A program made the position numbers and the translations under genes. Below are positions 27,140 to 41,806 of a stretch of DNA of 64,000 nucleotides, piece after piece. Numbering within the stretch: position 1 is the first letter of the stretch; each line of letters begins with the position of its first letter. The stretch is taken from positions 221,080 through 285,079 of the forward strand of contig NZ_JH719394.1 of NCBI RefSeq assembly GCF_000271845.1, read 5' to 3'. The DNA comes from Rhizobium leguminosarum bv. trifolii WSM2297. Lineage in GTDB: Bacteria; Pseudomonadota; Alphaproteobacteria; Rhizobiales; Rhizobiaceae. Below the pieces are notes generated by a model. It was not told the origin of the DNA, searched no databases, and was given only the letters and a program-made list of their open reading frames with translations.

Positions 27140-28051
27140 CTATCGCTCGAATGGTTCGCCGAGCGAAGCGACACCGTTCAGTTTCAGCAGGCGACGGTCG
27201 GCGGAGATGATACCGAGCACGATGATCGTGACGAGATAGGGCAGGCTCGACAGCAATTGCGAGGGAACGTTCAGTCCGGTTGCCTGGGCTGCAAGGCCCA
27301 TCAGCGAGACCGCACCGAAGAGGCAGGCGCCGAGGAAGATGCGACCGGTGAGCCAGGTCCCGAAGACGACGAGGGCGATAGCGATCCAGCCGCGTCCAGC
27401 GATCATCCCGTCGGCCCAGAGCGGCGTGTAGACGACCGCAGCATAGGCGCCGGCGAAGCCGGCCATTGCGCCGCCGAAGGCGATGGCGAGGATACGGACC
27501 GATATCACCGAATAGCCGATGGCGTGGGCGGCCTTCGGGTTCTCGCCGACGGCGCGGACGATGAGACCAAGCTTGGTGTAGGCAAGTATGGCCCAAAGAG
27601 CGAGGGTCGCGGCGAGCGAGATCCACACGACGATGTCCTGGACGAAAAGACCGCCGATCACCGGCAGTTCCGACAGCGCTGGAAGAGCAAGCTTCGGAAG
27701 ACCCCTGACCGTCAGGCTTTCATAGGTTTTGCCGAAGAGGGCCGAGAGGCCTTGGCCAAGAATGCCGATGGCAAGGCCGGTGGCCACCTGGTTTGCCCGG
27801 AACCCGAGCGTGACGAAGGCAAAGAGCAGCGAAAGGGCGGCGCTGCCGAGCCCCGCGACGATGAAGCCGAGAAGATGTCCGCCGCCGTGGTAAACGACGA
27901 TGAAGGCGAGCACGGCGCCAAGGGCCATCAATCCCTCGACCCCGAGATTGAGGACGCCGGCGCGCTCGGCCACCAATTCGCCGAGGGCTGCGAGAAGAAA
28001 GGGTGTCGCAGCCGCAAGCATGCCGGCAAGAATGAACTCGATGGCGTTCAT
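27140..28051 (-). CDS. ABC transporter permease, nucleoside/BMP type (second permease)
   Basis: About 303 residues from ATG 28051, which overlaps the TGA of the preceding permease gene (ATGA). The membrane protein has about eight to ten hydrophobic segments. It shows the conserved GELVAERAGVLNLGVEGLMALGA-type start (here residues about 22-44), typical of YufQ/NupQ-like permeases of BMP-family importers for nucleosides and bases. The frame is open ten codons further upstream. It is the last gene of the eight-gene operon. Confidence 0.9.
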   Translation of the reverse strand: MNAIEFILAGMLAAATPFLLAALGELVAERAGVLNLGVEGLMALGAVLAFIVVYHGGGHLLGFIVAGLGSAALSLLFAFVTLGFRANQVATGLAIGILGQGLSALFGKTYESLTVRGLPKLALPALSELPVIGGLFVQDIVVWISLAATLALWAILAYTKLGLIVRAVGENPKAAHAIGYSVISVRILAIAFGGAMAGFAGAYAAVVYTPLWADGMIAGRGWIAIALVVFGTWLTGRIFLGACLFGAVSLMGLAAQATGLNVPSQLLSSLPYLVTIIVLGIISADRRLLKLNGVASLGEPFER

Positions 28052-29148
28052 GGCAGGCTCCGCTGGGCGGTGCGGCGCCATTCAAGACGGTAACGCACGA
28101 AGGCGACGGCGATCAGGTAGGCGAGCAGCAGACTACCCTGGAAGACACGGACAGCGGCGATCGGCAGGCCGGCCGAGACCATGGCATTGTCGCCGCCGAT
28201 ATAGATGACCGCCATGACCAGCGCCGAGACCACGATGCCGATTGGATGCAGGCCGCCGAGATAGGCGACGATGATGGCCGCATAACCATAACCGCTCGCG
28301 ACCGAACGCTGCAGCTGGCCGAGCGGACCGGCAACTTCGGCGGCGCCGGCAAGACCGGCAGCAAAACCGCCGATCAGCAGCGAAAGCCAGATCGCCCAAC
28401 CTTCCCTGAAGCCGGCGTAGCCGGCAGCCCGGGGCGCCAGGCCGCCGACCTGCAGCTTATAGCCGATGAAGCTCTTCTGCATGAAGACCCACGCCGCAAC
28501 CGACAAACCGAGGGTGATGAGGAAGGAGACGTTGACGCGAGTCCCGGCAATCAGGGTCGGCACCATCGCATCGTACTGGAACATTACCGACTGGGGGAAA
28601 TTGAAGCCGTTCGGATCTTTCCAGGGCCCGAGCAGCAGATAGTTCAACAACTGCGCGGCAACGAGGCTCAGCATCAGCGAAACGAGGATCTCGTTGGCAT
28701 TGAGGCGTACGCGCCAGAAGGCGGTAAGAGAGGCCCAAATCGCGCCGCCGATGGCGCCTAAAAGCAGCATCGCCGGCCAGATCCACTGGCCCGTCGCCTG
28801 GGGAAACCAGACCGGAATGGCGGAGGCAAAGATCGCGCCAAGGATAAACTGGCCTTCGGCGCCGATATTGAAAACCTTGGCGCGAAAGCCGATTGCCAGA
28901 CCCTGGGCGATGAGGAGGAGGGGCCCAGCCTTTAACAGCACTTCCGAAAATGAGGCCCATGAGAGGAAGGGCTCGAAAAGCATTGCATGGACGACCGCGA
29001 CAGGGTCGCGGCCCATCAAAACGTAAAGGCCGAGATTGAGTGCGATCGCACCCCCCAGCGCAATAATGGGGGCGCAGAGCGCCGCGGCAAGCGAGGCATG
29101 CTCCCGGCGGACAAGGGTGGGAACGAAATCAGAAAACCAAACGCTCAT
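28048..29148 (-). CDS. ABC transporter permease, nucleoside/BMP type (first permease)
   Basis: About 366 residues from ATG 29148, whose A is the last base of the ATPase gene's TAA stop. The open frame reaches 29388, but homology begins at MSVWFSDFVPTLVRRE. A polytopic membrane protein with FNIGAEGQFILGAIF, typical of YufP/NupP-like permeases. It pairs with the permease encoded by the overlapping downstream gene to form the channel of the importer. Confidence 0.9.
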   Translation of the reverse strand: MSVWFSDFVPTLVRREHASLAAALCAPIIALGGAIALNLGLYVLMGRDPVAVVHAMLFEPFLSWASFSEVLLKAGPLLLIAQGLAIGFRAKVFNIGAEGQFILGAIFASAIPVWFPQATGQWIWPAMLLLGAIGGAIWASLTAFWRVRLNANEILVSLMLSLVAAQLLNYLLLGPWKDPNGFNFPQSVMFQYDAMVPTLIAGTRVNVSFLITLGLSVAAWVFMQKSFIGYKLQVGGLAPRAAGYAGFREGWAIWLSLLIGGFAAGLAGAAEVAGPLGQLQRSVASGYGYAAIIVAYLGGLHPIGIVVSALVMAVIYIGGDNAMVSAGLPIAAVRVFQGSLLLAYLIAVAFVRYRLEWRRTAQRSLP

Positions 29149-30668
29149 TATTGAACTTTCTCGGGCGAGACGTGTGCCCCGATCATATATCGGCCGATCT
29201 CCTCGGGCTTCGTGTCCCGCGTTGCGAGCGCCGGGCTGAGCCGGCCATGATGCAGCACCTGGATGGAATCGCAGAGCTCGAACAATTCTTCGAGCTCTTC
29301 GGAAATGACGAGAATCGCCATGCCCTGATTGCGCAATGCGATCAGGCGGCTGCGGATGGCCGAAGCTGCGCCGACATCGACGCCCCATGTCGGCTGTGCC
29401 GCGAAAAGCAATTTCGGAGACAGCATGATTTCGCGGCCGACGATGAATTTCTGCAGGTTGCCGCCCGACAGGGTGCCGGCTTCCGCTTCCGGGCCGGGCG
29501 TGCGGACATCATACTGACCGATACAATCCTTGGTGAAAGCCATCGCCCGCGCCCTTTCGATCAGACCACGCCGCAAAAGTTTGAGCGGATGAGCCGTCAG
29601 CAGGCTGTTGAGGACGAGCGACATTTCCGGTACGGCGCCGCGGCCGAGCCGGTCTTCCGGAACGAAGGCAAATCCGAGCTTGCGCCGCGCCGCGGCATCG
29701 AGCCTGCCGACATCCGCCCCCATCATATAGATCCGGTCGCGTTGTTCGCGCCCCAGCATGGTCTCGCCTGAAATCAGCGCGGCGAGCTCGCTTTGGCCGT
29801 TGCCCGAAATACCGGCGATCCCGAGGATTTCGCCGGCACGCACTTCGAGACTGAGGCTGGAGAGCGGCACCGCAAAGGGATCATCGGGCTGGTGGTCCAG
29901 ACCGATGATCTCCAGCCGCTTTTCCCCGCCGGACAGCGGCAGCGCCGAAATGGGTGCGGGCATATCGCGGCCGATCATCATCCGGGCAAGGTCATGGGCA
30001 TCATGTTCGCGCGGATCGACATCCCCGGTCACGCGTCCGCCGCGCAGGATCGTCGCCCGGTCGCAGATCGCCCGGATTTCTTCGAGCTTGTGGGAAATCA
30101 GCAGAACGGAAACGCCGCCGTCGCGCAGCCGACGCAGGGTGTCGAAAAGCTTCTCCACCAATTGCGGCGGCAGGACGGAGGTGGGCTCGTCAAGGATCAG
30201 CAGCTTCGGATTGGTCATCAGGCTTCGGATGATCTCCACGCGTTGCCGCTCGCCGACGGACAGCGCATGCACATGGGCAAGCGGATCGACCTCGAGGCCG
30301 AACTCCCGGCCAAGCGTCCGGATACGTTCCTTGAGATCAGCCTTCCGACCGGGCACCACCAGCTGAATATTCTCGATGACCGTCAGGGTCTCGAACAGCG
30401 AAAAGTGCTGGAAGACCATGCCGATGCCCTTGCGCCTCGCCTCCGCTGGGGAGGTCAGTCGCAACGGTGTTCCTTCCCAGATGACGTCTCCGTCGTCCGG
30501 TTGCTCGACGCCGTAGATCAGCTTCATCAGCGTCGATTTTCCCGCCCCGTTTTCACCGAGGATCGCATGGATCGATTGCGGAGCAACGTCCAGATCGATC
30601 GCCTGATTGGCGTGGATCTGGCCGTAGCTTTTCGAAATGCCGCGCAGCGACAGGAGCGGGGTGCTCAT
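29148..30668 (-). CDS. ABC transporter ATPase, nucleoside/BMP type, two nucleotide-binding domains
   Basis: About 506 residues. Domain 1 has Walker A GENGAGKST, signature LSVGERQRVEI and Walker B LLILDEPTSVL. Domain 2 has a degenerate Walker A (GISGNGQSELA) and the signature LSGGNLQKFIVG. This asymmetric double ATPase is typical of simple sugar and BMP/nucleoside importers (YufO/NupO, RbsA-like). It starts three bases after the binding-protein gene and shares one base with the next permease gene. Confidence 0.92.
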   Translation of the reverse strand: MSTPLLSLRGISKSYGQIHANQAIDLDVAPQSIHAILGENGAGKSTLMKLIYGVEQPDDGDVIWEGTPLRLTSPAEARRKGIGMVFQHFSLFETLTVIENIQLVVPGRKADLKERIRTLGREFGLEVDPLAHVHALSVGERQRVEIIRSLMTNPKLLILDEPTSVLPPQLVEKLFDTLRRLRDGGVSVLLISHKLEEIRAICDRATILRGGRVTGDVDPREHDAHDLARMMIGRDMPAPISALPLSGGEKRLEIIGLDHQPDDPFAVPLSSLSLEVRAGEILGIAGISGNGQSELAALISGETMLGREQRDRIYMMGADVGRLDAAARRKLGFAFVPEDRLGRGAVPEMSLVLNSLLTAHPLKLLRRGLIERARAMAFTKDCIGQYDVRTPGPEAEAGTLSGGNLQKFIVGREIMLSPKLLFAAQPTWGVDVGAASAIRSRLIALRNQGMAILVISEELEELFELCDSIQVLHHGRLSPALATRDTKPEEIGRYMIGAHVSPEKVQ

Positions 30669-30671
30669 GCG

Positions 30672-31769
30672 TTATTTCGGCAGCGGCGTCGACACGCCCT
30701 TGACGTGCCAATTCATGGCGATGATCTCGGGGTCGGCCATGGTTGCACCCGAGGCGACACCTTCGCTGCCGTCGGCCTTGGTGATCGGCCCGGTGAAGGG
30801 CGAGAAGCTGTCGTCGGCGATCTTTGCCTCGATCTCCTTGATCTTGGCCATCACGTCGGCCGGAATGGCCGGGTTCCAGTCGACCACTTCGACGACCTTG
30901 TCGGCGACGCCGAGGAACGCATTGGCCCCCTTGAACGTACCGGCGAGATGGGCATCGACCGACGCCTTGAAGAACGGCGACCAGTCAGTCGAGATGCAGC
31001 CGAGATAGGTTTTCGGCGCATATTTCTTCATCGACGAGTTGAGGTTGAAGGCGTAGACGCCGGCTTCTTCGCAGGCCGAGATGACGGACGGCGTGTCCTG
31101 GGCGTTGGAGAAGATCACGTCGCACTTCTGGGCGATCAGCGCCTTGGCTGCCTCCTGCTCCTTGGCCGGGTCGAACCAGGAATTGACCCAGACGACCGAG
31201 ACTTCAATATCGGGCTTGACGGCCTGAGCGCCGAGCGTGAAGGCGTTGATCGAGGTAATGAGCTCCGGGATCGCAAAGGCCGAGACGGAGCCGAGCTTGC
31301 CGGTCTTGCTGAGTGCTGCTGCTGCCATGCCGAGCAGATAGGTGCCCTGGAAATATTTGGCGGCGAAGGGTGAGAAATTCGGAGCCACCTGGAAGCCGGA
31401 GGCATGCAGGACCGTGACGCTCGGATCACGGCGGGCGATCTGCAGGGCGCCGTTCTGATAGCCGAAGGAGCCGGCAATCAGGAACTTGTTTCTGTCAGCG
31501 ACGGTCTTGGTCATGATGCGGTCGGCGTCCGGGCCTTCGGCGATATTCTCAAGCACGGTGACCTTCACCTTGTCGCCGTAAGCGGCCTTGATCGGCTCGA
31601 GACCTGCGGCAAGGGCATGCCCCCAGCCGACATCGCCGATCGGCGAGGGGACGACAAGCGTGATGCCGAGCGGCTGGTCGGCGGCAAAAGCAAGGCGGCT
31701 GCCGAGCGCGCCGGCAAGGCCGGTGGCGGCAACGGCCGTCATCAGGTTTCTGCGGGTCAGTCTGGTCAT
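30672..31769 (-). CDS. BMP-family (PnrA-like) periplasmic binding protein
   Basis: About 365 residues. The N-terminus has a twin-arginine-like export signal (LTRRNLMTAVAATGLAG) with cleavage near AFAADQP. The mature part is of the basic membrane protein family, whose characterised members bind nucleosides, purine bases or related heterocycles; seen are GDVGWGHALAAGLEPIK and NPAIPADVMAKI. It delivers ligand to the ATPase and two permeases downstream. With a purine-type deaminase and an oxygenase in the same operon, a purine or pteridine base is the likely ligand. Confidence 0.9.
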   Translation of the reverse strand: MTRLTRRNLMTAVAATGLAGALGSRLAFAADQPLGITLVVPSPIGDVGWGHALAAGLEPIKAAYGDKVKVTVLENIAEGPDADRIMTKTVADRNKFLIAGSFGYQNGALQIARRDPSVTVLHASGFQVAPNFSPFAAKYFQGTYLLGMAAAALSKTGKLGSVSAFAIPELITSINAFTLGAQAVKPDIEVSVVWVNSWFDPAKEQEAAKALIAQKCDVIFSNAQDTPSVISACEEAGVYAFNLNSSMKKYAPKTYLGCISTDWSPFFKASVDAHLAGTFKGANAFLGVADKVVEVVDWNPAIPADVMAKIKEIEAKIADDSFSPFTGPITKADGSEGVASGATMADPEIIAMNWHVKGVSTPLPK

Positions 31770-31794: not shown

Positions 31795-33174
31795 TTAGAA
31801 TTTCACGGCGGCGAGCACAGTCTCGGCATCGGCAGACAGCTGGGCCTCGTCGAGCCCGGGGAATTCGCCCTTCTGCCAGACGACGCGGCCATTGATCATC
31901 GTCATATCCGTTGCCATGCCGATGCCGACGCGGGCAATCAGGCCCAGCGGATCGTGCCGCGTGCCGACATAATCCATGCGGCGGGTGTCGATCGCAAACA
32001 GGTCAGCCGCCATGCCGGGCGCGAGCCGGCCGATATCGTCCCGGCCGAGCAGGCTCGCGCCGCCTGTCGTGCCAAAGCCGAGGAAATCGGCCGGCGGCGG
32101 CACGGGATGGGCGCGGTTGGAGGAGACGAGGCACTGCAGCATGTAAGCCGAATGCAGGCAGTGCATCAGGTTGGAATTGTCGTTGGAGGCAGCACCGTCG
32201 CAGCCAAGGCCGATGCGCAGGCCGAAGGCGGCCATGGCGGGAATATCGGTCACCTCTGCGCCGACCAGATAGACCGGCTCCGGGCAGTGCGCCACGCCGG
32301 TTCCGCTCGCCGCCATCGTCTTGAGCTCGTCGTGGGTCAGCTCCCAGCAATGGGCATAGAATGTGTCGGGGCCGGCAAAGCCGAGTTCTTCCAGATAATC
32401 GACGGTGCGCATGCCATAGCGGGCCTGAATGACTGGGCTTTCGCCCTCGCCGACATGGGTGTGCATCATGACGCCGCGATCACGCGCCAGTGCCACCGAT
32501 TCCGCAAAGGTCTCGCGATAACAATTCACCGGTTGGCAGGGTGCCACCACGACCTGGCGCATGCTGAAGCGGCTGGCATCGTGGTAGGTGTCGATCAGCC
32601 GGGCGCAGTCGGCGATGAATTCGTCGGTTGTTTCCAGCATCTCGTCGGGAATAGTCGAGCCTTCCGACTTCGGCAGGGTATTGCCGCCGCGGCCGGCGTG
32701 GAAGCGCATGCCGAGCAGTTCGGCTGCCTCGAACTGGCGGTCGATCAGCCGTTTTCCGGCGTGGCGGGGAAAATTGTATTGATGGTCGAAAGCCGTGGTG
32801 CAGCCATGTTTGATCAGCTCTGCCATCGCCGTGACGGAGGCGTGGTAAAAGCTTTCCTCGTTGAGCTGCGAAAAGATCGGGTAGATCCGGTCCAGCCACT
32901 CGATCACCGAGAGCTTCGTCCAGTCGAGATCGGCGCGATTGCGCACGAAGCACTGGAAAAAATGATGGTGGGTGTTGACGAGGCCCGGATAGACGAACCA
33001 ACCGGCGGCATCCTGAACGGTCGTGCCGGCGGGAAGCGCGTTCGCCGCCAGATTTTCGCCGATCGCCACAATCGCCGAACCGCTCGTGAGGAGATCGACA
33101 TTGCGACGGACGACCAGCCGCTTGCCGTCGTCGACGATCACGGCCGCGCAGTTCTTCAGGAGATAGCCGGTCAT
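31795..33174 (-). CDS. Amidohydrolase: guanine/8-oxoguanine-type deaminase (TRZ/ATZ family)
   Basis: About 459 residues. Metal-binding motifs of subtype III amidohydrolases are present: HHHFFQ in PGLVNTHHHFF, HTHVGEGE, the His of YAHCWEL, and LGCDGAASND with the catalytic Asp. The pattern resembles 8-oxoguanine deaminases (HHHF.Q, AHCPEP, SNDNSNLM) rather than chlorohydrolases. It would hydrolyse an amino group from a purine-like or pteridine base in the cytosol. The variant GEGE in place of the usual AET suggests a substrate of its own. It follows the GST-like gene by one base. Confidence 0.82.
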   Translation of the reverse strand: MTGYLLKNCAAVIVDDGKRLVVRRNVDLLTSGSAIVAIGENLAANALPAGTTVQDAAGWFVYPGLVNTHHHFFQCFVRNRADLDWTKLSVIEWLDRIYPIFSQLNEESFYHASVTAMAELIKHGCTTAFDHQYNFPRHAGKRLIDRQFEAAELLGMRFHAGRGGNTLPKSEGSTIPDEMLETTDEFIADCARLIDTYHDASRFSMRQVVVAPCQPVNCYRETFAESVALARDRGVMMHTHVGEGESPVIQARYGMRTVDYLEELGFAGPDTFYAHCWELTHDELKTMAASGTGVAHCPEPVYLVGAEVTDIPAMAAFGLRIGLGCDGAASNDNSNLMHCLHSAYMLQCLVSSNRAHPVPPPADFLGFGTTGGASLLGRDDIGRLAPGMAADLFAIDTRRMDYVGTRHDPLGLIARVGIGMATDMTMINGRVVWQKGEFPGLDEAQLSADAETVLAAVKF

Positions 33175-33175
33175 G

Positions 33176-33838
33176 TCACGCCTCGCCCGGTTCGTCGATA
33201 TGCGGTTCGGGCTTCAATTCGTGCAGCCTGTGAATACCCGGCATCTCAATAAACTTGTCAAGGGCGCGCAGCGCCCGCGACCAGAGCCGGATGGCGGGAT
33301 ACGCATCCAGCGTGACGCCCCCATCGGGCGCCAGCGCCACATAGGGAAAGCAGGCGATGTCGGCAATTGTCGGTCGGTCGGCGGCAAGGAAGCGCATGCC
33401 GCGAAGACCCTGCTCGACAAGCCCGGCCTCAAGCTCGCGAAGCGCCGCAATACCCTGGGCCTGCAGCGCGCCGATATCGCCCGGCCGCAGCAGCATTTCA
33501 TGAAGCCGCGCGCCGCCGAGGCTTGCCGTCAGCCGGCCGGAGAACGACAGCCATTGCTGCACCTTTGCCGCTTCTTCGGCCTTGCCGCTGCCAAGCCATT
33601 CGGGTGCTGCCTTGGCGGCGAGATAGACGAGGATCGCCGACGATTCGGTCAGGAGCAGATCGCCATCCTCGAGGATCGGAATGGAGCCTGCCGGATTGAG
33701 GGCAAGAAGCTCGGGGCCGCGATGCTCGACGCCGGGATGAAAATCCACCGGGCGGAGTTCAAGCTTCACGTCGGTCAGCGCCGCCATCAGGCGCACCTTG
33801 TAGCAGCTGGGGGAGAGAATATAGTCGTAGAGCTTCAT
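33176..33838 (-). CDS. Glutathione S-transferase-like protein (possible NdmE-type scaffold)
   Basis: About 220 residues. The N-terminal thioredoxin-fold domain has LSPSCYKVRLMAAL and NPAGSIPILEDGDLLLTESSAI, which carry the glutathione-binding positions. The C-terminal half is the all-helical GST domain. Its start overlaps the oxygenase gene by four bases, so it is made together with it. In caffeine degraders a GST-like protein (NdmE) is a structural part of the N7-demethylase complex; the same arrangement beside a Rieske-less oxygenase suggests a similar role here. A simple detoxifying GST cannot be excluded. Confidence 0.85.
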   Translation of the reverse strand: MKLYDYILSPSCYKVRLMAALTDVKLELRPVDFHPGVEHRGPELLALNPAGSIPILEDGDLLLTESSAILVYLAAKAAPEWLGSGKAEEAAKVQQWLSFSGRLTASLGGARLHEMLLRPGDIGALQAQGIAALRELEAGLVEQGLRGMRFLAADRPTIADIACFPYVALAPDGGVTLDAYPAIRLWSRALRALDKFIEMPGIHRLHELKPEPHIDEPGEA

Positions 33839-34680
33839 TGCGCCACCAGCTGTGCGCCATAGGTATAATTGTGACGCTTCAGCCAGCGCCGATAGGCGAT
33901 CGATGTCAGATCAGCCCGCGTCGGGATTTCCATGCCGGGATCGAGCGGCAGGAGCCGCGGGATCTGGTTTTCGAGGATCGAACGGTCCTGCAGGAAGATC
34001 GTCTGCTGGAAGTGGATGAGGTCGGTCATCGCTGTCTCGTCGTCGAAAAGCGCCATCCACGGCCAGACGTCGCACAGATCCTCGGCCAGCGGCTGCACGA
34101 AGAGCGTGATGACATCCCATTCGCTCGGGCGCGGCGGACAGGTCTTGTAGAGCACGGAACAGGTCGGCGCGGGCACGCGGTACATATATTCGGTGGTAAT
34201 GCCACCGCTTGCCGATTTGGCGGCCTGCGGCTGGTAAAACTTCACCTGCGTTGCCCAGACTTCGTCTTCCTTTTCGCGGATCTCGACCTTGTAGTTCTGA
34301 ACCTCGGTGTGCGGCTCTGCGCCGAGAATGTCGGTGTGGACGAAGGGGAAATGGGCGACGTCGAGGAAGTTCTCGACGGCACGCAGGGGCGAGCAGCGCA
34401 CCCGCACCACGCCGACGTCGACGAAACGGCGGCCGGGCTGGTCGGCCTCGGGGATCGGGAAAATATCCTTCCTCGGCTCGCCGAGGGAAGACCAGACATG
34501 GCCGTAACGTAGGCGCACCGGCAGAACACGGCCGTTGCCGTCCGTTACCCGCGCATTGCCATCGGCGTCGCTCGCCACGTCGATCGGCTCGCCCATCAGC
34601 GCCGTCTTGCGACCGGCGCTGTCGAGCTGACTGAAAAGCCCAACCGGATACCATTCGTCGATCATCGCCTGCATGGTCAT
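33835..34680 (-). CDS. Rieske-oxygenase catalytic subunit lacking the Rieske cluster site (NdmC-like)
   Basis: About 281 residues. The N-terminal ~75 still look like the edge of a Rieske domain (WYPVG, ALMGEPIDVASDADG, LRYGHVWSSLG), but the CxH...CxxH cluster loops are missing. The mononuclear-iron domain is intact: NFLDVAHFPFVH supplies His110 and His115 with the electron-bridging Asp107, and Asp232 in FLQDRSILENQ is the likely third ligand. This is the layout of VanA/Ndm-type N- or O-demethylases, shortened as in NdmC. It overlaps the upstream Rieske-protein gene by four bases, which probably supplies the electrons. Likely reaction: oxidative demethylation or hydroxylation of a heterocycle. 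Confidence 0.82.
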   Translation of the reverse strand: MTMQAMIDEWYPVGLFSQLDSAGRKTALMGEPIDVASDADGNARVTDGNGRVLPVRLRYGHVWSSLGEPRKDIFPIPEADQPGRRFVDVGVVRVRCSPLRAVENFLDVAHFPFVHTDILGAEPHTEVQNYKVEIREKEDEVWATQVKFYQPQAAKSASGGITTEYMYRVPAPTCSVLYKTCPPRPSEWDVITLFVQPLAEDLCDVWPWMALFDDETAMTDLIHFQQTIFLQDRSILENQIPRLLPLDPGMEIPTRADLTSIAYRRWLKRHNYTYGAQLVAQ

Positions 34681-35330
34681 TGCGCGATCTCCTTTTTCTG
34701 AAGACCTTCAGCCCGGCGGCGCAGACTTTCGCAAGCCCGCGAAGCGCCGATGGCCGCGGCAGGGCCGACGTCATCCCTCAGCAGCACATGGATCAGCGTC
34801 TGCCCATCCTCCTGGGCGGATAATAGCAGACAGAGGCTGCCGGTGGATGCGCCGAGCTCGATAAGACCGTCAGGATTCGCCTTCGCGCTGGCTGCCGCCT
34901 CGATCGCGGCAGTGCCTGCAAACGCCGTCAGCGAGCGCAGGGGAATGAGGCCGTCCAGCCTCGGCGGCTTCGACGCCGGCGTGCCGACCGCCACCCAGAT
35001 CACGCTGCCCGCTTCCTCAACCTCATGGGTGGCGACACGGATGCTTTCCGGCGGCGCCAGTCCCGGATGGGCGGGAATGCGCAGACAGTTTCCGGCCTGG
35101 CCATAGCTCCAGCCGTGATAGATGCAGGAAAGCGCCTCGCCGCGCACGAAGCCATGAGATAAGCGCATGCCGCGGTGCGGACAGCGATCCGCCGATGCCG
35201 ATACACGCCCCGAAGCGCTGCGCCAGAGAGCAATCGATCCAGATGCCGTCCGGGCCGGCATGACGGTTGCGGCAGGCAGATCCCGGGAAAGGGCGACTGG
35301 CGTCCAAAAGCCGGTCGGATCGGATGGCAT
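34677..35330 (-). CDS. Stand-alone Rieske [2Fe-2S] protein with short C-terminal extension
   Basis: About 217 residues. Residues 1-110 form a Rieske domain with Cys50-Pro-His52 (CPHRG) and Cys69/His72 (CIYHGW), the correct spacing for oxygenase-type clusters. Residues 115-217 do not carry the iron site of a catalytic domain and look like a shortened, degenerate remnant or a docking domain. It is the first gene of the operon and overlaps the gene for the clusterless oxygenase. The pair reads as one Rieske oxygenase split in two. No reductase gene is present nearby, so the electron donor must come from elsewhere. Confidence 0.85.
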   Translation of the reverse strand: MPSDPTGFWTPVALSRDLPAATVMPARTASGSIALWRSASGRVSASADRCPHRGMRLSHGFVRGEALSCIYHGWSYGQAGNCLRIPAHPGLAPPESIRVATHEVEEAGSVIWVAVGTPASKPPRLDGLIPLRSLTAFAGTAAIEAAASAKANPDGLIELGASTGSLCLLLSAQEDGQTLIHVLLRDDVGPAAAIGASRACESLRRRAEGLQKKEIAQ

Positions 35331-35452: not shown

Positions 35453-35719
35453 TCAAGTCGTTTCGCGGGTGATCGCCGTGCGTTCTATGCTCTCCACCCA
35501 CACGTCGATAGGCCCCAGAGAGCATCCGACCTCCATCATGTCGATCAATTCCTCGGGTCCGGAAACGTCGACATCGATCCTCTTCGAGCTCGTATGAGAT
35601 ATGCTGTGCGAGAGCCCGAGCTTGGCCGCATGGCGCCGGATCCAGGGGACAAAGGAGGCAGCCTTGAGATCACCGACAATCGTCATCCGCTCCCGGAGGT
35701 GGCTTGTATCTTGTCCCAT
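35453..35719 (-). CDS. Acylphosphatase-like protein lacking catalytic residues
   Basis: About 88 residues from ATG 35719; the frame extends to 35851. The pattern IVGDLKAASFVPWIRRHAAKLG ... IDVDVSGPEELIDMM matches the small alpha/beta acylphosphatase fold (in acylphosphatases: GRVQGVGFRYW, GW-RN, EGPEE). The catalytic Arg position reads Val (SFVPW) and the Asn region reads SISHT, so it is probably not an active acylphosphatase and may have become a binding protein. It stands alone between the purine-type operon and a GNAT gene. The family call is from pattern memory. Confidence 0.6.
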   Translation of the reverse strand: MGQDTSHLRERMTIVGDLKAASFVPWIRRHAAKLGLSHSISHTSSKRIDVDVSGPEELIDMMEVGCSLGPIDVWVESIERTAITRETT

Positions 35720-35902: not shown

Positions 35903-36778
35903 CTAACTTAACGCATGGCCGGCCAAGCCATACACCACCGGTTCGCCGTTTTTGCTTTGCAGGAAGGGCCGCCCCTTGGACATGGTCGTCACGGTGTCCG
36001 AGACGGCAAGCCGGCTTTGTTGAAGGAACTCGGCGAACAGACCCTTCTCCCGCGTATCGACGCGCGCGAAACGGCCTGCCAAATCCTTGAGATGCACGGC
36101 TGCGAGATGGATGGCGTCCTGATCGTTGCTTGCCACGATCGGACCGACCACGTGGCCGCGTCCGAACTCGCGGCACATGGAATAGCCGACGATTTCGTCG
36201 CCCCGCCGGAGTGTGCAAACGGCAGCACCTTCCGCAAGCAAAGCAAGCAACTTGCCGCGATCAGTGCCGAAGACGCGCGTATCGAGAGCGTTGATCTCCT
36301 CGACATTGTCATTTGACAATTCGCTCAGCTGCCCGTTCAGTTCCGGCAGGGGAGGGAGCTTGGGCGTGACATCTCCCTGGTATTGATAGACAATCGCTTC
36401 CTTGGTGAAGCCGAGAGAAACATAAAGCCTGTAAGCCGCGTGGGTTGAATTCAGGCTCAGATTGCGGTCGCCGCACTGCTCAAACACTTGCTCCATGAGC
36501 CATCGGCCAGTCCCTTGCGCCTGCGTGCGCGGCGACGTGATCACCAGCCCGATCGTGGCGAAATCGTCCCCATGCGGAAACCACATCGCGCTTCCGAAGA
36601 CGCGTCCGATCCCATCGACGGCGACGATGCCCCGGCCCGCGCGCCGCAGAAAATCCCAGTCCTTGGGCCGGTGCGGCCAGCCGACGCCTATCGACAGCGC
36701 GTGAAGCAGGCTGACATCGACGCTGTTGATATCCTGCGCAATCAATTCGAACGATTTCAGCCGCACTGATTTTTGCAT
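35903..36778 (-). CDS. Tandem-GNAT acetyltransferase (paralogue of 46485-47318)
   Basis: About 291 residues. An N-terminal GNAT domain shows the acetyl-CoA pyrophosphate loop near RTQAQGTGRWLMEQ. A C-terminal domain shares DRGKLLALLAEGA and the FGRGHVVGPIVASN stretch with the other GNAT protein in this window. The common LSIGVGWPHRPKDWDF start makes the two clear paralogues. Substrates of this family are unknown; acetylation of an amine or amino acid is likely. It is divergent from an argE-like gene 240 bases away, which removes acetyl groups from amines, a suggestive pairing. Confidence 0.82.
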   Translation of the reverse strand: MQKSVRLKSFELIAQDINSVDVSLLHALSIGVGWPHRPKDWDFLRRAGRGIVAVDGIGRVFGSAMWFPHGDDFATIGLVITSPRTQAQGTGRWLMEQVFEQCGDRNLSLNSTHAAYRLYVSLGFTKEAIVYQYQGDVTPKLPPLPELNGQLSELSNDNVEEINALDTRVFGTDRGKLLALLAEGAAVCTLRRGDEIVGYSMCREFGRGHVVGPIVASNDQDAIHLAAVHLKDLAGRFARVDTREKGLFAEFLQQSRLAVSDTVTTMSKGRPFLQSKNGEPVVYGLAGHALS

Positions 36779-37018
36779 TTTCGCGTATCCGCTCCGTTCG
36801 CCGGATCACCAAACTCCACTGGAGGTCGACAGCGTCTTTGATCCTGCGCCGATTGCAACCAAGTCACAATATCGCACACGAAGGCCGGCAGGATTGGCTT
36901 GTTCGCCGCAACAATTCGAAATCTTCAGCTGAACCGAGGCCCCACTCAGCAGGCAAAACTCCTGCCTTTGCTTAGGCTAGTTAGCATCTGGACCCCTCCA
37001 AAGGCAACTTGGTCACCC

Positions 37019-38146
37019 ATGAACGTCATCGATATTCTCGCGAGGCTGGTCGCGTTCCCCTCCGTTGTCGGAACGTCGAACGGCGCGATTGCCGACTGGA
37101 TAGGCGACTACTGCCGAAAGGCGGGAGCCGATGTCACGATCCATCCTGGCCCTGAAGGGGACCGATACAACCTTTTCGCGACCGTGGGACCGCGGGAAGA
37201 CCGCGGTTACATTCTGTCCGGGCACATGGATGTCGTGCCGGCCGGCGAACCGGAATGGAGTTCCGACCCATTCGTCCTGCGCCCTGCGGGAGACAGGCTT
37301 TATGGACGCGGCGCCAGCGATATGAAGGGTTTTCTCGCCTGCGCCCTGGCCGCATTGCCGAAGCTTGCCGCCATGAACCTGCGGCGGCCGATCCACCTTG
37401 CCTTCTCCTATGACGAGGAGGCAGGCAGCCGCGGCGTGCCGCATCTGATCGCGGCGCTGCCGAAGCTGTGCAATGCCCCGCTCGGGGCGATCATCGGCGA
37501 ACCGAGCCGAATGCAGGCGGTACGAGGGCATAAGGGCAAGGCAGCCGTCCGGCTGGAGGTGATCGGGCGGTCAGGTCATTCCTCGCGCCCCGATCTCGGG
37601 CTAAACGCCATTCATGCGATGGCCAATCTGATCACAGAGGTGGCCGTATACGGCACGTCCCTGACGAGCGGCCCCTTTCACCATGATTTCGCGCCGCCCT
37701 ACTCGTCACTGCAGGTTGGCGTCATTGCCGGCGGCCAATCGGTCAACATCATTCCGGATCGCTGCACAGCAGATATCGAGGTCCGCGCCGTGCCGGGGAT
37801 CTCACCGTCATCGCTGCTCGACCCGGTAAAAGCGAGACTCACTGCTCTCAGAGACCAGGGATTCGAGGTGGGCTGGCATGAGCTGAGCGCCTACCCCGGA
37901 CTTGCGCTCCCCGAAGACAGCCAACTCGCAACCCTGCTGAGGGAGTTGACCGGGCAGGAGCCGCTTGCCGCCGTGAGCTACGGCACAGAAGCCGGGCTCT
38001 ATCAGCAGTCCGGCATCGATTCCATCATCTGCGGGCCCGGGGATATCGGCCGTGCGCACCGACCTGACGAATATATCGAAGTTGGCGAGCTCGCAGCATG
38101 CCAGACGATGATCGAGGCGCTCGGCGCCCATCTTGCCCGAGGCTGA
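37019..38146 (+). CDS. ArgE/DapE-family deacetylase (acetylornithine deacetylase-like)
   Basis: About 375 residues. Zinc-peptidase motifs of family M20 are present: [14 protein letters not shown] with the first metal His and Asp, [10 protein letters not shown], and the DEEAGSRG catalytic Glu region. It is of ArgE type: hydrolysis of N-acetyl-ornithine or another N-acyl amino acid. ATG 37019 is chosen as the first well-aligned residue; the frame opens at 36899. It is the first gene of a three-gene operon with a GhrA-like reductase and a cupin. Because arginine synthesis in rhizobia usually uses other genes, a catabolic role for N-acyl amines is possible. Confidence 0.85.
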
Positions 38147-38162
38147 AGGAAGGCAATTTTCC

Positions 38163-39086
38163 ATGGCGTTTCTCTTCAACTCCGATGCAACCCGCGGTGC
38201 GATTTTCCGGGAGATTTTTGCGCGCGAGCTTCCGGATCTGGAATTCGTCGGGCAGGGCCAACCGGTGGATCCGGACAAGATACGCTATCTGCTGACCTGG
38301 ACAGTCCCCGACGAGATCTCTCGCTACCGGAATTTGGAAGTGCTGTTTTCTATCGGCGCCGGCGTCGATCAATTCGAACAAGACAGCGTGCCGGCGCATA
38401 TAGCCGTCGTGCGCATGGTCGAGGATGGCATCATCCGGATGATGCAGGAATACGTCACGCTTGGCGTCCTGACGCTCCACCGCGAGATGCTCGCCTACCG
38501 AGAACTGCAGAAACAGTCGGCCTGGCAGGCGCTGGCCGCACCGCAGGCCGCCCGGCGCAGAATAGGTTTCCTCGGCCTCGGCATCCTTGCGCAGGCGGCG
38601 ATCGAGCGATTGAAGCCGTTCCAATTTCCCCTCGCAGGATGGAGCCGCAGCAAAAAGCAAATCGATGGGGTCACCTGCCATCATGGCAAGGACGGACTTA
38701 CCGATTTTCTGGCAGAGACGGACATTCTGGTCTGCCTGCTGCCGCTGACCGACGAGACGCGCGGCGTTCTCAACGCCGAACTCTTCGCCCAGCTGCCGGC
38801 CGGTGCCAGGCTGTTGCATGTGGGTCGCGGGCCGCACCTCGATCAGACGGCACTGATCGAGGCACTCGATAGCGGCCGTCTCGCCGCGGCAATGCTCGAT
38901 GTCACCGATCCCGAGCCGCTGCCGGCGGACCATCCACTCTGGCATCATCCAAAAGTGGCGATCACGCCGCACATCGCCTCCGTCACCCAGCCGGAAACGG
39001 CGGCGCACGCGGTCATCGAAAATATTCGGCGCCACCGCGCCGGCAAAAATCTGATCGGCATGGTCGATCGGACACGTGGTTACTAA
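38163..39086 (+). CDS. Glyoxylate/hydroxypyruvate reductase A-like D-2-hydroxyacid dehydrogenase
   Basis: About 307 residues. The NAD(P)-binding domain has [16 protein letters not shown], and catalytic residues lie in [10 protein letters not shown] (Arg), DVTDPEPLP (Glu) and [12 protein letters not shown] (His), as in GhrA. It reduces glyoxylate and hydroxypyruvate with NAD(P)H, or works on related 2-keto acids. ATG 38163 has a GAAGGAAGG site at a good distance; the frame starts slightly upstream inside the previous gene. The gap to the argE-like gene is 16 bases, so they are cotranscribed. Confidence 0.87.
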
Positions 39087-39100
39087 ACGAGGAAAAAGAA

Positions 39101-39457
39101 ATGTCGCTTCTGTTGACCATCGATACCGATCCGAGCTTCACCCCAAAGCAGGCCGTGCCGGACGCCGAACGGCTGATTTCGGGCAGCCCGGCCTACAAGA
39201 CCTGGGCACAGGATGCCTCAAAAGGTGAGAAGGTGCTCACCGGCATTTGGGAAGCGACGCCCGGCGAACACCATTCCATCAAGGGCACCGTCTACGAATT
39301 CTGCCACATCCTTTCAGGTGTCGTCGAAATCGACGAAAAGGACGGTGAGACGAAGACCTACCGCGCCGGCGACAGCTTTGTGATGAAACCTGGTTTTGTC
39401 GGCGTCTGGCGTACCATCGAAACCGTGCGCAAGATCTATGTCTGCGTTTACGACTGA
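39101..39457 (+). CDS. Small cupin-domain protein
   Basis: About 118 residues, a single cupin barrel of the kind Cupin_3/DUF861 (EFCHILSGVVEIDEKDG ... YRAGDSFVMKPGFVGVW). Related proteins include EutQ-like and ureidoglycine aminohydrolase-like enzymes as well as non-catalytic binders. Only one His of the usual metal set is clear (CHIL), so catalysis is uncertain. Third gene of the operon, 14 bases after the reductase, followed by a strong terminator. Confidence 0.82.
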   Translation: MSLLLTIDTDPSFTPKQAVPDAERLISGSPAYKTWAQDASKGEKVLTGIWEATPGEHHSIKGTVYEFCHILSGVVEIDEKDGETKTYRAGDSFVMKPGFVGVWRTIETVRKIYVCVYD

Positions 39458-39466
39458 GTGAAACCG

Positions 39467-39496
39467 ACAGGCGCGCCCGAATGTCGGCGCGCCTGT
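39467..39496 (+). terminator. Terminator after the argE-ghrA-cupin operon
   Basis: A perfect 11-bp stem, ACAGGCGCGCC and GGCGCGCCTGT, with an eight-base loop, ten bases after the cupin stop and followed by TCTAT. The opposing cupin gene ends at 39536, so it may serve both directions. Confidence 0.75.
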
Positions 39497-39535
39497 TCTA
39501 TCATCTGCTAAAGCAGGCGAGACGGCTGATCCCGG

Positions 39536-40255
39536 TTAAGTCTCAAGGCCTTCGGCGATGACAAAGATCTTCTTGAGGTTGCCGTGAATTGACAGGCGGT
39601 TGATCGTGCCACGGTCGACGAAAATCGCGTCCCCAGGCCCGACCGATGTCTTCGTCCCGTCTGCATCGGCCACCTCAGCCTGCCCCTCCAGAATGTACAT
39701 CAATTCATGGACGGGATGAGGACGCGACAGCCGAACATGCGGCGTCGTCGCCCAGACACCAGCCCGAAAGCCGGCCGCTTCGTCGGAAAATGCCCTGAAC
39801 TGACGGCACTGCGGCGTGTCCCCTTCCACGTACTGCGCCGGAGGCGGCGCGGAGGCGGCAAGCGCCACACCGCTGTCGATCACCACGACGCCCTGCGTAC
39901 TCGATGTCGCCGCGGTCGTCGCACAGAAGATCCAGCGCGTGCCTGCTTCCGCCTCCGCCGTGATGTCCTCGCCCCGGCCGATGACCACGCTGTCGCCGGA
40001 GGTGAGATGAAACGTCGAGCCGCCCGAATAGAGGACAAGACGCCCTGCCACGACGACCAAGCATTCCGTATGGGGAAAGCGACTGATCGAGATCTTTCCG
40101 TCCCAATGGACCGATCCGGTGGAAACCCCGCCCGAGGCGGTCCAGACGATATCGCGGCCGGCCCCGAAGATGTCGTCTGGTCCCAAAGTGCTTCGCTTGC
40201 CTTCCGGAGCGGAACCGCTTTTCGCCTCGAAGAGGAGAATGGTTTTACCGGTCAT
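39536..40255 (-). CDS. Two-domain cupin protein
   Basis: About 239 residues made of two cupin barrels. The first (about 45-100) has HTECLVVVAGRLVLYSGG and a GDSVVIGRGE turn. The second (about 170-235) has PHPVHELMYILEGQAEVADADG with two His and a Glu able to bind a metal, and GPGDAIFVDRG. Similar proteins include bicupin dioxygenases and (S)-ureidoglycine aminohydrolase. Convergent with the first cupin operon and divergent from the FAD oxidase gene. Function unknown. Confidence 0.82.
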   Translation of the reverse strand: MTGKTILLFEAKSGSAPEGKRSTLGPDDIFGAGRDIVWTASGGVSTGSVHWDGKISISRFPHTECLVVVAGRLVLYSGGSTFHLTSGDSVVIGRGEDITAEAEAGTRWIFCATTAATSSTQGVVVIDSGVALAASAPPPAQYVEGDTPQCRQFRAFSDEAAGFRAGVWATTPHVRLSRPHPVHELMYILEGQAEVADADGTKTSVGPGDAIFVDRGTINRLSIHGNLKKIFVIAEGLET

Positions 40256-40528
40256 CGTGGGGCTCCCATTTTGATGAGATATTCATAAGCTTGGTGCTGG
40301 CGCCATTTGGATTGTTCCTCGAAGCACCGCGGACCGAATTCTGCTCAAATCCTAATCTGTGGCTTGCGCGGGTGGGCAGCGGAGTTGGCGCATAAACAGA
40401 ATATCCTGTGGTTTGCTGCCCCGAACACAGGCAATTGTTGCGAAACAAAGCCGCCTGCGCCGCCCCCCTCCAACCAAGCCGGCATATACTTCATGCATCG
40501 GATCAGACGAGTATAAAGGCATGCGCCA

Positions 40529-41806
40529 ATGAAATTTGCGTCCTACTGGCATGATACCTCGATCCCATTTGCCGGAGGCCTCGCCGACCCCGTCTCCGGA
40601 GATTTCGAGGCGGCGGTGATCGGAGCCGGCTTCACGGGGCTCAACGCCGCGCGCACGCTGGCGCAAGCCGGCGTGAAGGTCGCTCTGCTGGAAGCCGAAC
40701 ACGTTGGGTACGGTGCGTCCGGCCGCAATGGCGGGCACCTGAACAGCGGTCATTTCGCAAGCTTCGGCGCCGCCAAGCAGCATCTCGGGGAAGACCGGGC
40801 GCGCCGCTTGTGGCGGGCCTATGACGATTCGATCGACATGATCGAACGGATCATCGACGAAGAAAAGATCGCCTGCGACTTCCGCAGGGGCGGCAAGCTC
40901 AAGCTTGCCTCGAAGCCCTCTCATGTCGGCAAGCTGCAGGCAATGTCCGAAGAAATCCGTCGCGAGGTCGACCCGTCAGCCGAATGGCTCACACGTGAGG
41001 ACCTCCGCAAGGAGATTATATCGGATGCCTTCCATGGCGGGATTCTCTATCCGAAATCCGCGATGATGCACATGGGACGCTTCGCCAACGGCATCGCGGA
41101 TGCGGCCCGCCGCCATGGCGCGGCGATCTGGGAGCGGAACCCGGTCACCGCCCGCGAGCGCGTGGCGAATGGATGGCGGCTAATCACGCCGACCGGCTCG
41201 CTCACCGCCCGCCAGGTCATCCTGGCGACCGACGCCTATACGCCAAGCGCCTTTAACTATTTCCGCCGAAGGCTGATGCCGATCGCTTCCTTCATCATTG
41301 CGACGCGCCCACTCACCCCGCAGGAGGTCGCCGCGACGATTCCGGGCAACCGCAACTTCACCAATTCCCTCAACATCTCCAACTATTTCCGCCTGACGCC
41401 CGACAACCGCTTGCTGTTCGGGGGGAGGGCGCGGTTTTCGGCCATGTCCAACCAGAAAACCGACGTCAGCTCCGGCCAGCTTCTGCGCCAACAGATGGTC
41501 GGCATGTTTCCGCAGCTTGCTGACGTCGAGATCGACTATTGCTGGGGCGGACTCGTCGGCTGCACGCAAGACCGTTATCCGCGCGCGGGCAGCGCAGACG
41601 GTGTCATTTACAGCATGGGCTATTCCGGTCACGGGGCCCAGTTATCGACCTTCATGGGGAATGCGCTGGCCAATATGGCGATGGGGCGCAAGGACGGCAA
41701 TCCGCTGGACGGCTTCGCGTGGCCCGCCGTTCCGATGCATACGGGAAACCCATGGTTCCTGCCCATCGTCGGCGCCTATTACCGCATGAAGGATCTCGTC
41801 GGATGA
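40529..41806 (+). CDS. FAD-dependent amine oxidase (PuuB/DadA-type)
   Basis: About 425 residues of the DAO family. The dinucleotide-binding motif is AAVIGAGFTGLNAARTL near residue 30, followed by GYGASGRNGGHLNSG, typical of gamma-glutamylputrescine oxidase PuuB and its relatives. The C-terminal FAD contact lies in IYSMGYSGHGAQLSTFMG. It would oxidise an amine to an aldehyde with release of H2O2 or reduction of another acceptor. The aldehyde dehydrogenase gene overlaps it by four bases and would take the aldehyde on. No glutamate-putrescine ligase gene is nearby. Confidence 0.87.
   Translation: MKFASYWHDTSIPFAGGLADPVSGDFEAAVIGAGFTGLNAARTLAQAGVKVALLEAEHVGYGASGRNGGHLNSGHFASFGAAKQHLGEDRARRLWRAYDDSIDMIERIIDEEKIACDFRRGGKLKLASKPSHVGKLQAMSEEIRREVDPSAEWLTREDLRKEIISDAFHGGILYPKSAMMHMGRFANGIADAARRHGAAIWERNPVTARERVANGWRLITPTGSLTARQVILATDAYTPSAFNYFRRRLMPIASFIIATRPLTPQEVAATIPGNRNFTNSLNISNYFRLTPDNRLLFGGRARFSAMSNQKTDVSSGQLLRQQMVGMFPQLADVEIDYCWGGLVGCTQDRYPRAGSADGVIYSMGYSGHGAQLSTFMGNALANMAMGRKDGNPLDGFAWPAVPMHTGNPWFLPIVGAYYRMKDLVG

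What the first reader, a model, noticed from the sequence alone, without database searches (positions are those of the whole stretch)
33176..35330. Split Rieske oxygenase plus GST-like protein: an NdmC/NdmE-like demethylase outside caffeine degraders
The catalytic subunit (33835-34680) keeps His110, His115 and Asp232 but has lost the CxH/CxxH cluster loops. The overlapping gene upstream encodes a Rieske protein with C50-H52-C69-H72 and no iron site. A GST-like gene overlaps the other side. In caffeine-degrading Pseudomonas the N7-demethylase is built from a Rieske-less NdmC, GST-like NdmE and a separate Rieske donor (NdmD). Here the donor is a small stand-alone protein without reductase. A purine-type deaminase and a nucleobase-type importer share the operon, so the substrate may be a methylated or oxidised purine or pteridine.
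Basis: partly seen in the sequence, partly recalled or inferred. Interest (0 to 1): 0.88.

Follow-up and report, generated by a model that had tools for sequence, protein, structure and literature searches.

The report
Two-part oxygenase in methylguanine operon
Root-nodule bacteria carry a conserved gene set that probably takes up methylated guanines and strips their methyl groups with an oxygenase whose two metal centres sit on two separate, complementary proteins; it is related to the caffeine-degrading enzyme of Pseudomonas but lacks its built-in electron supplier.

Summary
Window 33176-35330(-) encodes a cluster-less oxygenase subunit (Cat), a separate Rieske protein (Rsk) and a GST in one operon, complete in 80 of 81 fetched loci (two are the same record; one is cut by a contig end). 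Cat and GST are 44% and 41% identical to NdmC and NdmE of a caffeine-type cluster. NdmCDE-like clusters in rhizobia are already published. New here: (1) Rsk matches the first part of NdmD, and no NdmD-type reductase lies nearby. (2) Models show both proteins as whole Rieske-oxygenase subunits with complementary losses. (3) The 'purine-type deaminase' carries all 13 published active-site residues of N2,N2-dimethylguanine hydrolase (NdmH) at identical numbering, with AtzB as control; NdmH's authors say its physiological context is still under study. (4) A degenerate acylphosphatase-like gene is found in 24 of 32 free-Rieske loci and 0 of 21 fused ones, but few independent events underlie this. 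Best reading: import and N-demethylation of methylated guanines or xanthines, most likely at N7, ending in xanthine. Substrate, electron donor and complex are inferred. One close relative lacks the hydrolase, and many relatives carry guanine deaminase instead.

The parts
35453..35719 (-). AcyP-like small protein (88 aa from the likely ATG; the open frame reaches to 35851)
   Evidence: weak acylphosphatase match (20.4 bits, cut-off 22.5); upstream of Rsk; HMM hit in 80 of 81 rhizobial loci
34677..35330 (-). Rsk: Rieske [2Fe-2S] protein with a shrunken oxygenase-type C-terminal domain and no iron site
33835..34680 (-). Cat: oxygenase subunit with 2-His-1-Asp iron site (H110, H115, D232), bridging D107, Rieske-domain strands without cluster loops
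33176..33838 (-). GST-like protein (NdmE-like)
   Evidence: 41% identical to the NdmE of L082
31795..33174 (-). Amidohydrolase with the complete NdmH (N2,N2-dimethylguanine hydrolase) residue signature
30672..31769 (-). BMP-family periplasmic binding protein, AtzT-like (guanine-type site)
29148..30668 (-). ABC transporter ATPase
28048..29151 (-). ABC transporter permease 1 (start taken from the annotated orthologue; the open frame is longer)
27140..28081 (-). ABC transporter permease 2

Best explanation
This is an operon for using methylated guanines. An AtzT-like ABC transporter imports the base. A Rieske oxygenase spread over two proteins removes an N-methyl group with O2, releasing formaldehyde: Rsk holds the [2Fe-2S] cluster, Cat holds the iron, and the GST-like protein holds them together. 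The NdmH-type hydrolase replaces the 2-amino or 2-dialkylamino group by oxygen. The product is xanthine. N7 is the most likely demethylation site. Two orders are possible: 7-methylguanine or 2,2,7-trimethylguanine to 7-methylxanthine to xanthine, or demethylation first. Electrons come from a reductase encoded elsewhere, perhaps docked by the acylphosphatase-like protein. Shown here: gene anatomy, conservation, metal ligands, single-chain predicted folds, the NdmH residue signature. Inferred: the complex, the substrate, the position demethylated, the electron donor, the role of AcyP.
For: Cat and GST are 44% and 41% identical to NdmC and NdmE of a caffeine-type cluster; Rsk's Rieske domain is 39% identical to that of NdmD. 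At the position of the specificity pair of NdmA (N282/F286, recalled) Cat and NdmC have the same residues, Gln and Phe. The hydrolase has 13 of 13 NdmH residues at identical numbering, and AtzB shows SSII at the CQNN columns as published. The 7 close orthologues among 297 genomes all lie 661-667 bases from Cat. The binding protein keeps five of seven guanine contacts of AtzT (counted by eye). Around other Cat relatives guanine deaminase (10 of 56 loci) and 8-oxoguanine-deaminase-type genes recur.
Against: No activity was measured. NdmH hydrolyses N2,N2-dimethylguanine to xanthine by itself, so that compound alone needs no oxygenase. Genome G091 has Cat at 88% with AcyP, Rsk and GST but no close hydrolase (best 41%, on another contig). 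An NdmH-like gene with a BMP importer also occurs without an oxygenase (L202). No formaldehyde-handling gene was seen in the 8-gene operon, unlike in L082. No NdmD-type reductase lies nearby. The binding protein differs at two of seven contacts. The Cat model has lower confidence (pLDDT 58-68) at residues 111-130, near the iron ligands.
Confidence: 0.55

Rival explanations
1. The oxygenase hydroxylates a purine ring carbon (for example C8) instead of demethylating, like the molybdenum-independent xanthine hydroxylase HpxD, and the hydrolase acts on the oxidised or unmodified base.
For: HpxD-annotated proteins are distant relatives of Cat (26-33% identity). 8-oxoguanine-deaminase-type genes lie near some Cat relatives (L133, L150, L151, L160), and xanthine-dehydrogenase-like genes lie near others (L087, L088, L141).
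Against: NdmC is far closer (44% over the whole length), with the same GST partner and the same split. The window hydrolase is not of the 8-oxoguanine type (378.7 of 532 bits; residues).
Confidence: 0.15
2. The oxygenase removes N2- or N1-methyl groups of RNA-derived guanines, and the hydrolase takes the dimethylated and unmodified forms.
For: The hydrolase signature is that of an enzyme for a N2-alkylated guanine.
Against: The known NdmC substrate is 7-methylxanthine (PMC4408171), and NdmH already removes the whole N2-dialkylamino group, which makes N2 demethylation superfluous.
Confidence: 0.15
3. The substrate is not a purine: a triazine-like, pterin-like or other heterocycle handled by promiscuous relatives of purine enzymes.
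For: AtzB-type enzymes are promiscuous, acting on triazines too (PMC13054789 section 7). AtzT also binds 2-hydroxyatrazine. Two of seven contact residues of the binding protein differ.
Against: Guanine deaminases, 8-oxoguanine-type deaminases and xanthine-dehydrogenase-like genes recur around other Cat relatives, and the hydrolase has CQNN, not AtzB's SSII.
Confidence: 0.13

Closest known systems
NdmCDE, GST-dependent 7-methylxanthine N7-demethylase of Pseudomonas putida CBB5
   Same: Cluster-less catalytic subunit, GST partner, Rieske domain on another protein; 44%, 41% and 39% identity to the proteins of the caffeine-type cluster L082
   Different: No reductase fused to or next to the Rieske protein; an AcyP-like gene, an NdmH-type hydrolase and a BMP importer in the operon; no ndmA/ndmB
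Fused NdmCDE-like clusters of Sinorhizobium and Mesorhizobium (noted in PMC4408171)
   Same: Cat, GST and BMP importer; guanine deaminase in L087
   Different: These carry an NdmD-type Rieske-reductase fusion and no AcyP was found in their fetched flanks
NdmH, N2,N2-dimethylguanine hydrolase (PMC13054789), and AtzB
   Same: 13 of 13 listed residues at identical numbering; AtzB 55% identical overall
   Different: No assay; AtzB has SSII in place of CQNN
SxtT / GxtA Rieske oxygenases
   Different: One protein with both centres
AtzT guanine-binding protein
   Same: Best PDB match; Ser97, Phe98, Glu165, Trp194, Asn218 kept
   Different: Tyr45 to Trp, Asn220 to Asp

Membership tests
Rieske non-heme iron oxygenase | [2Fe-2S] ligands C-x-H ... 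C-x-x-H and 2-His-1-carboxylate iron site | tested here: met
   Both present but on two proteins: 81 of 81 and 81 of 81 loci; folds match whole oxygenases
NdmCDE-type N7-demethylase | Catalytic subunit without Rieske cluster | tested here: met
   triad kept, cluster loops absent
NdmCDE-type N7-demethylase | NdmE-like GST encoded alongside | tested here: met
   41% identity to the NdmE of L082, 4-base overlap with Cat
NdmCDE-type N7-demethylase | Rieske domain fused to the reductase (NdmD) | tested here: not met
   No reductase part in the window or in L001-L081 by tblastn at E<=1e-5
NdmCDE-type N7-demethylase | 7-methylxanthine to xanthine activity in a three-protein complex | not testable with these tools
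   Needs protein; complexes could not be modelled
NdmH (N2,N2-dimethylguanine hydrolase) | Active-site residues Q74 W85 W93 Y98 Y133 N165 C213 Q214 N217 E243 H275 P300 D326 | tested here: met
   13 of 13 in the window; AtzB control shows SSII
NdmH (N2,N2-dimethylguanine hydrolase) | Much higher efficiency on N2,N2-dimethylguanine than on guanine | not testable with these tools
   Assay needed; the sequences of the assayed NdmH enzymes were not among those fetched
8-oxoguanine deaminase (NF006055) | Curated cut-off 532 bits | tested here: not met
   378.7 bits; CQNN in place of the C-S-S/T-M pattern of the 40%-level paralogues
AtzT-like guanine-binding protein | Seven ligand contacts of AtzT | tested here: inconclusive
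   Five of seven kept, two changed
Acylphosphatase (PF00708) | Pfam gathering score 22.5 | tested here: inconclusive
   Window 20.4, R. johnstonii 20.7, Qingshengfaniella 23.7 bits
Acylphosphatase (PF00708) | Catalytic Arg and Asn (roles recalled) | tested here: not met
   In the R. johnstonii orthologue Val and His align with them; the window protein has the same Val by eye

The most novel reading that the evidence does not exclude
Free-Rieske systems of this type are the parent form of NdmCDE: a duplicated oxygenase subunit lost its iron site in one copy and its cluster in the other, and a degenerate acylphosphatase acts as docking adaptor for a shared cellular reductase in place of a fused one. 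In rhizobia the operon feeds on eukaryotic RNA debris (7-methylguanine or 2,2,7-trimethylguanine cap bases, N2,N2-dimethylguanine) and is the missing physiological context of NdmH.
Probability: 0.2. Interest if true: 0.82.

Novelty: new variant of a known kind. Interest (0 to 1): 0.62.

Why it matters
It joins two poorly understood things: the GST-dependent split Rieske oxygenases, whose rhizobial relatives are described as of unknown function (PMC4408171), and NdmH, an activity published in 2026 whose physiological context its authors say is still under study (PMC13054789). Both become testable in genetically easy rhizobia. It also offers a natural oxygenase whose two metal centres sit on complementary degenerate subunits without a built-in reductase, so the assembly rule and the electron donor become open, checkable questions. 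If correct, it assigns a pathway for RNA-derived methylated bases to soil and plant-associated bacteria.

Tried and rejected
Frameshift or pseudogene in one genome: rejected; Rsk and Cat are full length in 81 of 81 loci. 8-oxoguanine deaminase: suggested by the best PDB hits, rejected on cut-off and residues. Pterin substrate: no support; only tested in so far as the deaminase-type entry 2paj is a weaker match than 7ww2 and 3hpa. Strict exclusion of AcyP and reductase: not upheld as an independent rule. L136 has a separate reductase and, about 4 kb away, an AcyP; eight of 32 free loci have no AcyP found in the fetched flanks (L086, L135, L159, L165, L166, L167, L169, L170; L086 is counted as free because its fused gene is split into two frames); the tree gives only 3 changes between free and fused and 3 independent pairs, too few for a test. 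Electron donor: 4 of 4 searched genomes have NdmD-reductase-like genes at 33-36% identity for the best match, none marked out as partner. Phylum-wide survey of Cat: asked five times in the same form, never answered. Class-wide search for the hydrolase at E<=1e-130: 1 of 385, the centre genome itself. Literature searches without a relevant paper: 8-oxoguanine deaminase + Rieske, 0; 7-methylguanine + demethylation + Rieske, 0; dimethylguanine + hydrolase + Rieske, 0; Rieske + GST + split + non-heme iron + Rhizobium, 0; acylphosphatase + Rieske + GST, 1 unrelated listing; 7-methylguanine + 7-methylxanthine + bacteria + catabolism, 2 urine-metabolome listings. The J Bacteriol 2013 paper on NdmCDE is not held, so I do not know whether it listed free-Rieske clusters. 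NdmA positions 282 and 286 are recalled; only the PDB title 'NdmA QL mutant' was seen. The labels NdmA and NdmB are swapped in the scripts; no conclusion depends on them.

Full report
Observation. The three genes are as described: Rieske protein (Rsk) 34677-35330(-), oxygenase subunit (Cat) 33835-34680(-), GST-like 33176-33838(-), each overlapping the next by 4 bases. Downstream on the same strand follow an amidohydrolase (31795-33174), a BMP-family binding protein (30672-31769), an ATPase (29148-30668) and two permeases.

Conservation. A scan of species genomes found 190 stretches encoding a relative of Cat and kept the best 80 (87-96% identity). With one plasmid record of R. johnstonii 3841 this gives 81 loci, of which L001 and L006 are the same record, so 80 are distinct. 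All eight operon genes are in 80 of the 81; the other, L019, is cut by its contig end after the amidohydrolase, and its permease hits (29% and 32%) lie elsewhere. The Rieske ligands are kept in 81 of 81, the iron triad plus Asp107 in 81 of 81, and Rsk and Cat are full length in 81 of 81. The window's flanking acetyltransferase, deacetylase, dehydrogenase and oxidase genes were found in only 3 of 81 loci, so the operon is its own unit.

Relation to NdmCDE. A Pseudomonas putida plasmid (L082) holds a caffeine-type cluster with two full-length oxygenases, a nucleobase symporter, NdmC, NdmD and NdmE, flanked by formaldehyde-handling genes. One of its oxygenases (1602-2657) reads, in the aligned stretch, like the PDB sequence of NdmA. 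Its NdmC is 44% identical to Cat and its NdmE 41% to the GST; residues 9-123 of its NdmD are 39% identical to Rsk. Most of the rest of Rsk aligns with the stretch between Rieske domain and reductase of NdmD-like proteins. A tblastn with four NdmD reductase parts found nothing in the window or in L001-L081 at E<=1e-5. PMC4408171 (passages seen) states that 18 further organisms, predominantly Sinorhizobium and Mesorhizobium, hold ndmCDE homologues of unknown function. The loci of these genera that I read outside the 81 (L087-L089) have the fused NdmD form, whereas the Mesorhizobium and Sinorhizobium/Ensifer loci among the 81 have the free form. So the broad claim is known; I did not find the reductase-free form described, but the 2013 paper is not held.

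The hydrolase. Its best PDB hits are 8-oxoguanine-deaminase-type enzymes, but it scores 378.7 against the cut-off of 532 for that family. PMC13054789 (outline with abstract and sections 7 and 8 read; passages elsewhere) describes N2,N2-dimethylguanine hydrolases and lists residues of the Pleomorphomonas oryzae enzyme. The window protein has thirteen of thirteen at the same numbers. As control, AtzB of Paenarthrobacter, 55% identical, shows SSII at the CQNN columns, as the paper says. The signature is in 120 of the 120 listed best homologues of the Qingshengfaniella orthologue (of 1666 found) and in 80 of 81 rhizobial loci (the other reads differently at four positions). Among 297 genomes of the order 117 have a homologue at E<=1e-60; 7 are 79-92% identical, the next best 41%, and all 7 lie 661-667 bases from Cat. 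Of the 30 loci returned, these 7 carry the signature and the other 23 an 8-oxoguanine-deaminase-like pattern. Against a fixed pairing: one of the 8 genomes with Cat at 79% or more, G091, has AcyP, Rsk, Cat and GST but no close hydrolase. A gut Clostridia plasmid has an NdmH-like gene (48%, CQNN) with a BMP importer and a purine-nucleoside phosphorylase but no oxygenase in the 13 kb read. The authors write that they are investigating the physiological context of NdmH; the words Rieske, operon and transporter do not occur in the main text.

Importer. The binding protein matches guanine-binding AtzT best. PMC6834077 (passages) gives a guanine Kd of about 110 nM and seven contacts; five are kept, Tyr45 is Trp and Asn220 is Asp (counted by eye with an offset of 5 that fits all seven letters).

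Wider context. I read 56 loci with flanks (window, L082-L089, L124-L170; L088 and L089 are near-duplicates, some contigs are short): 32 have a free Rieske gene, 21 a fused NdmD, 3 no Rieske gene nearby. Guanine deaminase is in 9, 1 and 0 of these groups, an amidohydrolase closer to the window's in 9, 1 and 3, a BMP importer in 18, 10 and 0. Of the 9 free loci with such an amidohydrolase, 4 (window, L084, L124, L142) have the NdmH signature, 3 (L133, L150, L151) the 8-oxoguanine pattern, and L131 and L140 only a looser relative. Two guanine deaminases (L125, L131) and one 8-oxoguanine deaminase (L133) were tested against NCBIfam and passed their cut-offs.

Acylphosphatase-like protein. A small protein upstream of Rsk (window 35453-35719) gave an HMM hit in 80 of 81 rhizobial loci, 24 of 32 free-Rieske loci and 0 of 21 fused ones. 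Arg and Asn of a solved acylphosphatase align with Val and His in the R. johnstonii protein. It is just under the Pfam cut-off in the window and just over it in Qingshengfaniella. On a tree of 61 Cat proteins the fused forms lie in one group of 26 rows (SH-aLRT 88) that also holds two free ones; with only 3 changes the link to AcyP is not statistically independent.

Mechanism. I commit to O2-dependent N-demethylation of a methylated guanine or xanthine by Rsk-Cat-GST (about 0.65 for demethylation, about 0.5 for N7), combined with hydrolysis at C2 by the NdmH-type enzyme, giving xanthine. Hydrolysis first would hand the oxygenase 7-methylxanthine, the known NdmC substrate. The electron donor is unknown.

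Verdict. A real, conserved new variant of a known kind; its main value is the joint context of an uncharacterised split-oxygenase lineage and NdmH.

Noticed in passing
window 35453-35719(-); L084 7969-8220; 24 of 32 free-Rieske loci: A conserved, apparently catalytically dead acylphosphatase-like protein travels with the reductase-free split oxygenase; its role is unknown.
   Followed up: partly
L088 8071-9882; also L152-L156 and L160: Several fused-NdmD loci carry two adjacent NdmC-like genes (49% identical to each other in L088), which suggests two catalytic subunits with different methyl positions sharing one NdmD.
   Followed up: no
L141, L162, L163 (also L150, L151): A Cat subgroup lies next to a distinct TRZ/ATZ-type amidohydrolase; in L141 a xanthine-dehydrogenase-like gene is adjacent and no Rsk lies nearby, although that genome holds a second Cat locus with Rsk.
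   Followed up: no
L202 277-7380 (Pusillibacter faecalis plasmid): A gut Clostridia plasmid carries a BMP importer, purine-nucleoside phosphorylase and an NdmH-like hydrolase with the CQNN residues in one strand order.
   Followed up: no
window 35903-43257: Upstream neighbourhood: acetyltransferase, acetylornithine-deacetylase-like, 2-hydroxyacid-dehydrogenase-like, cupins, FAD oxidoreductase and aldehyde-dehydrogenase-like frames (the dehydrogenase names by eye); the first-named neighbours are shared by 3 of 81 loci.
   Followed up: no
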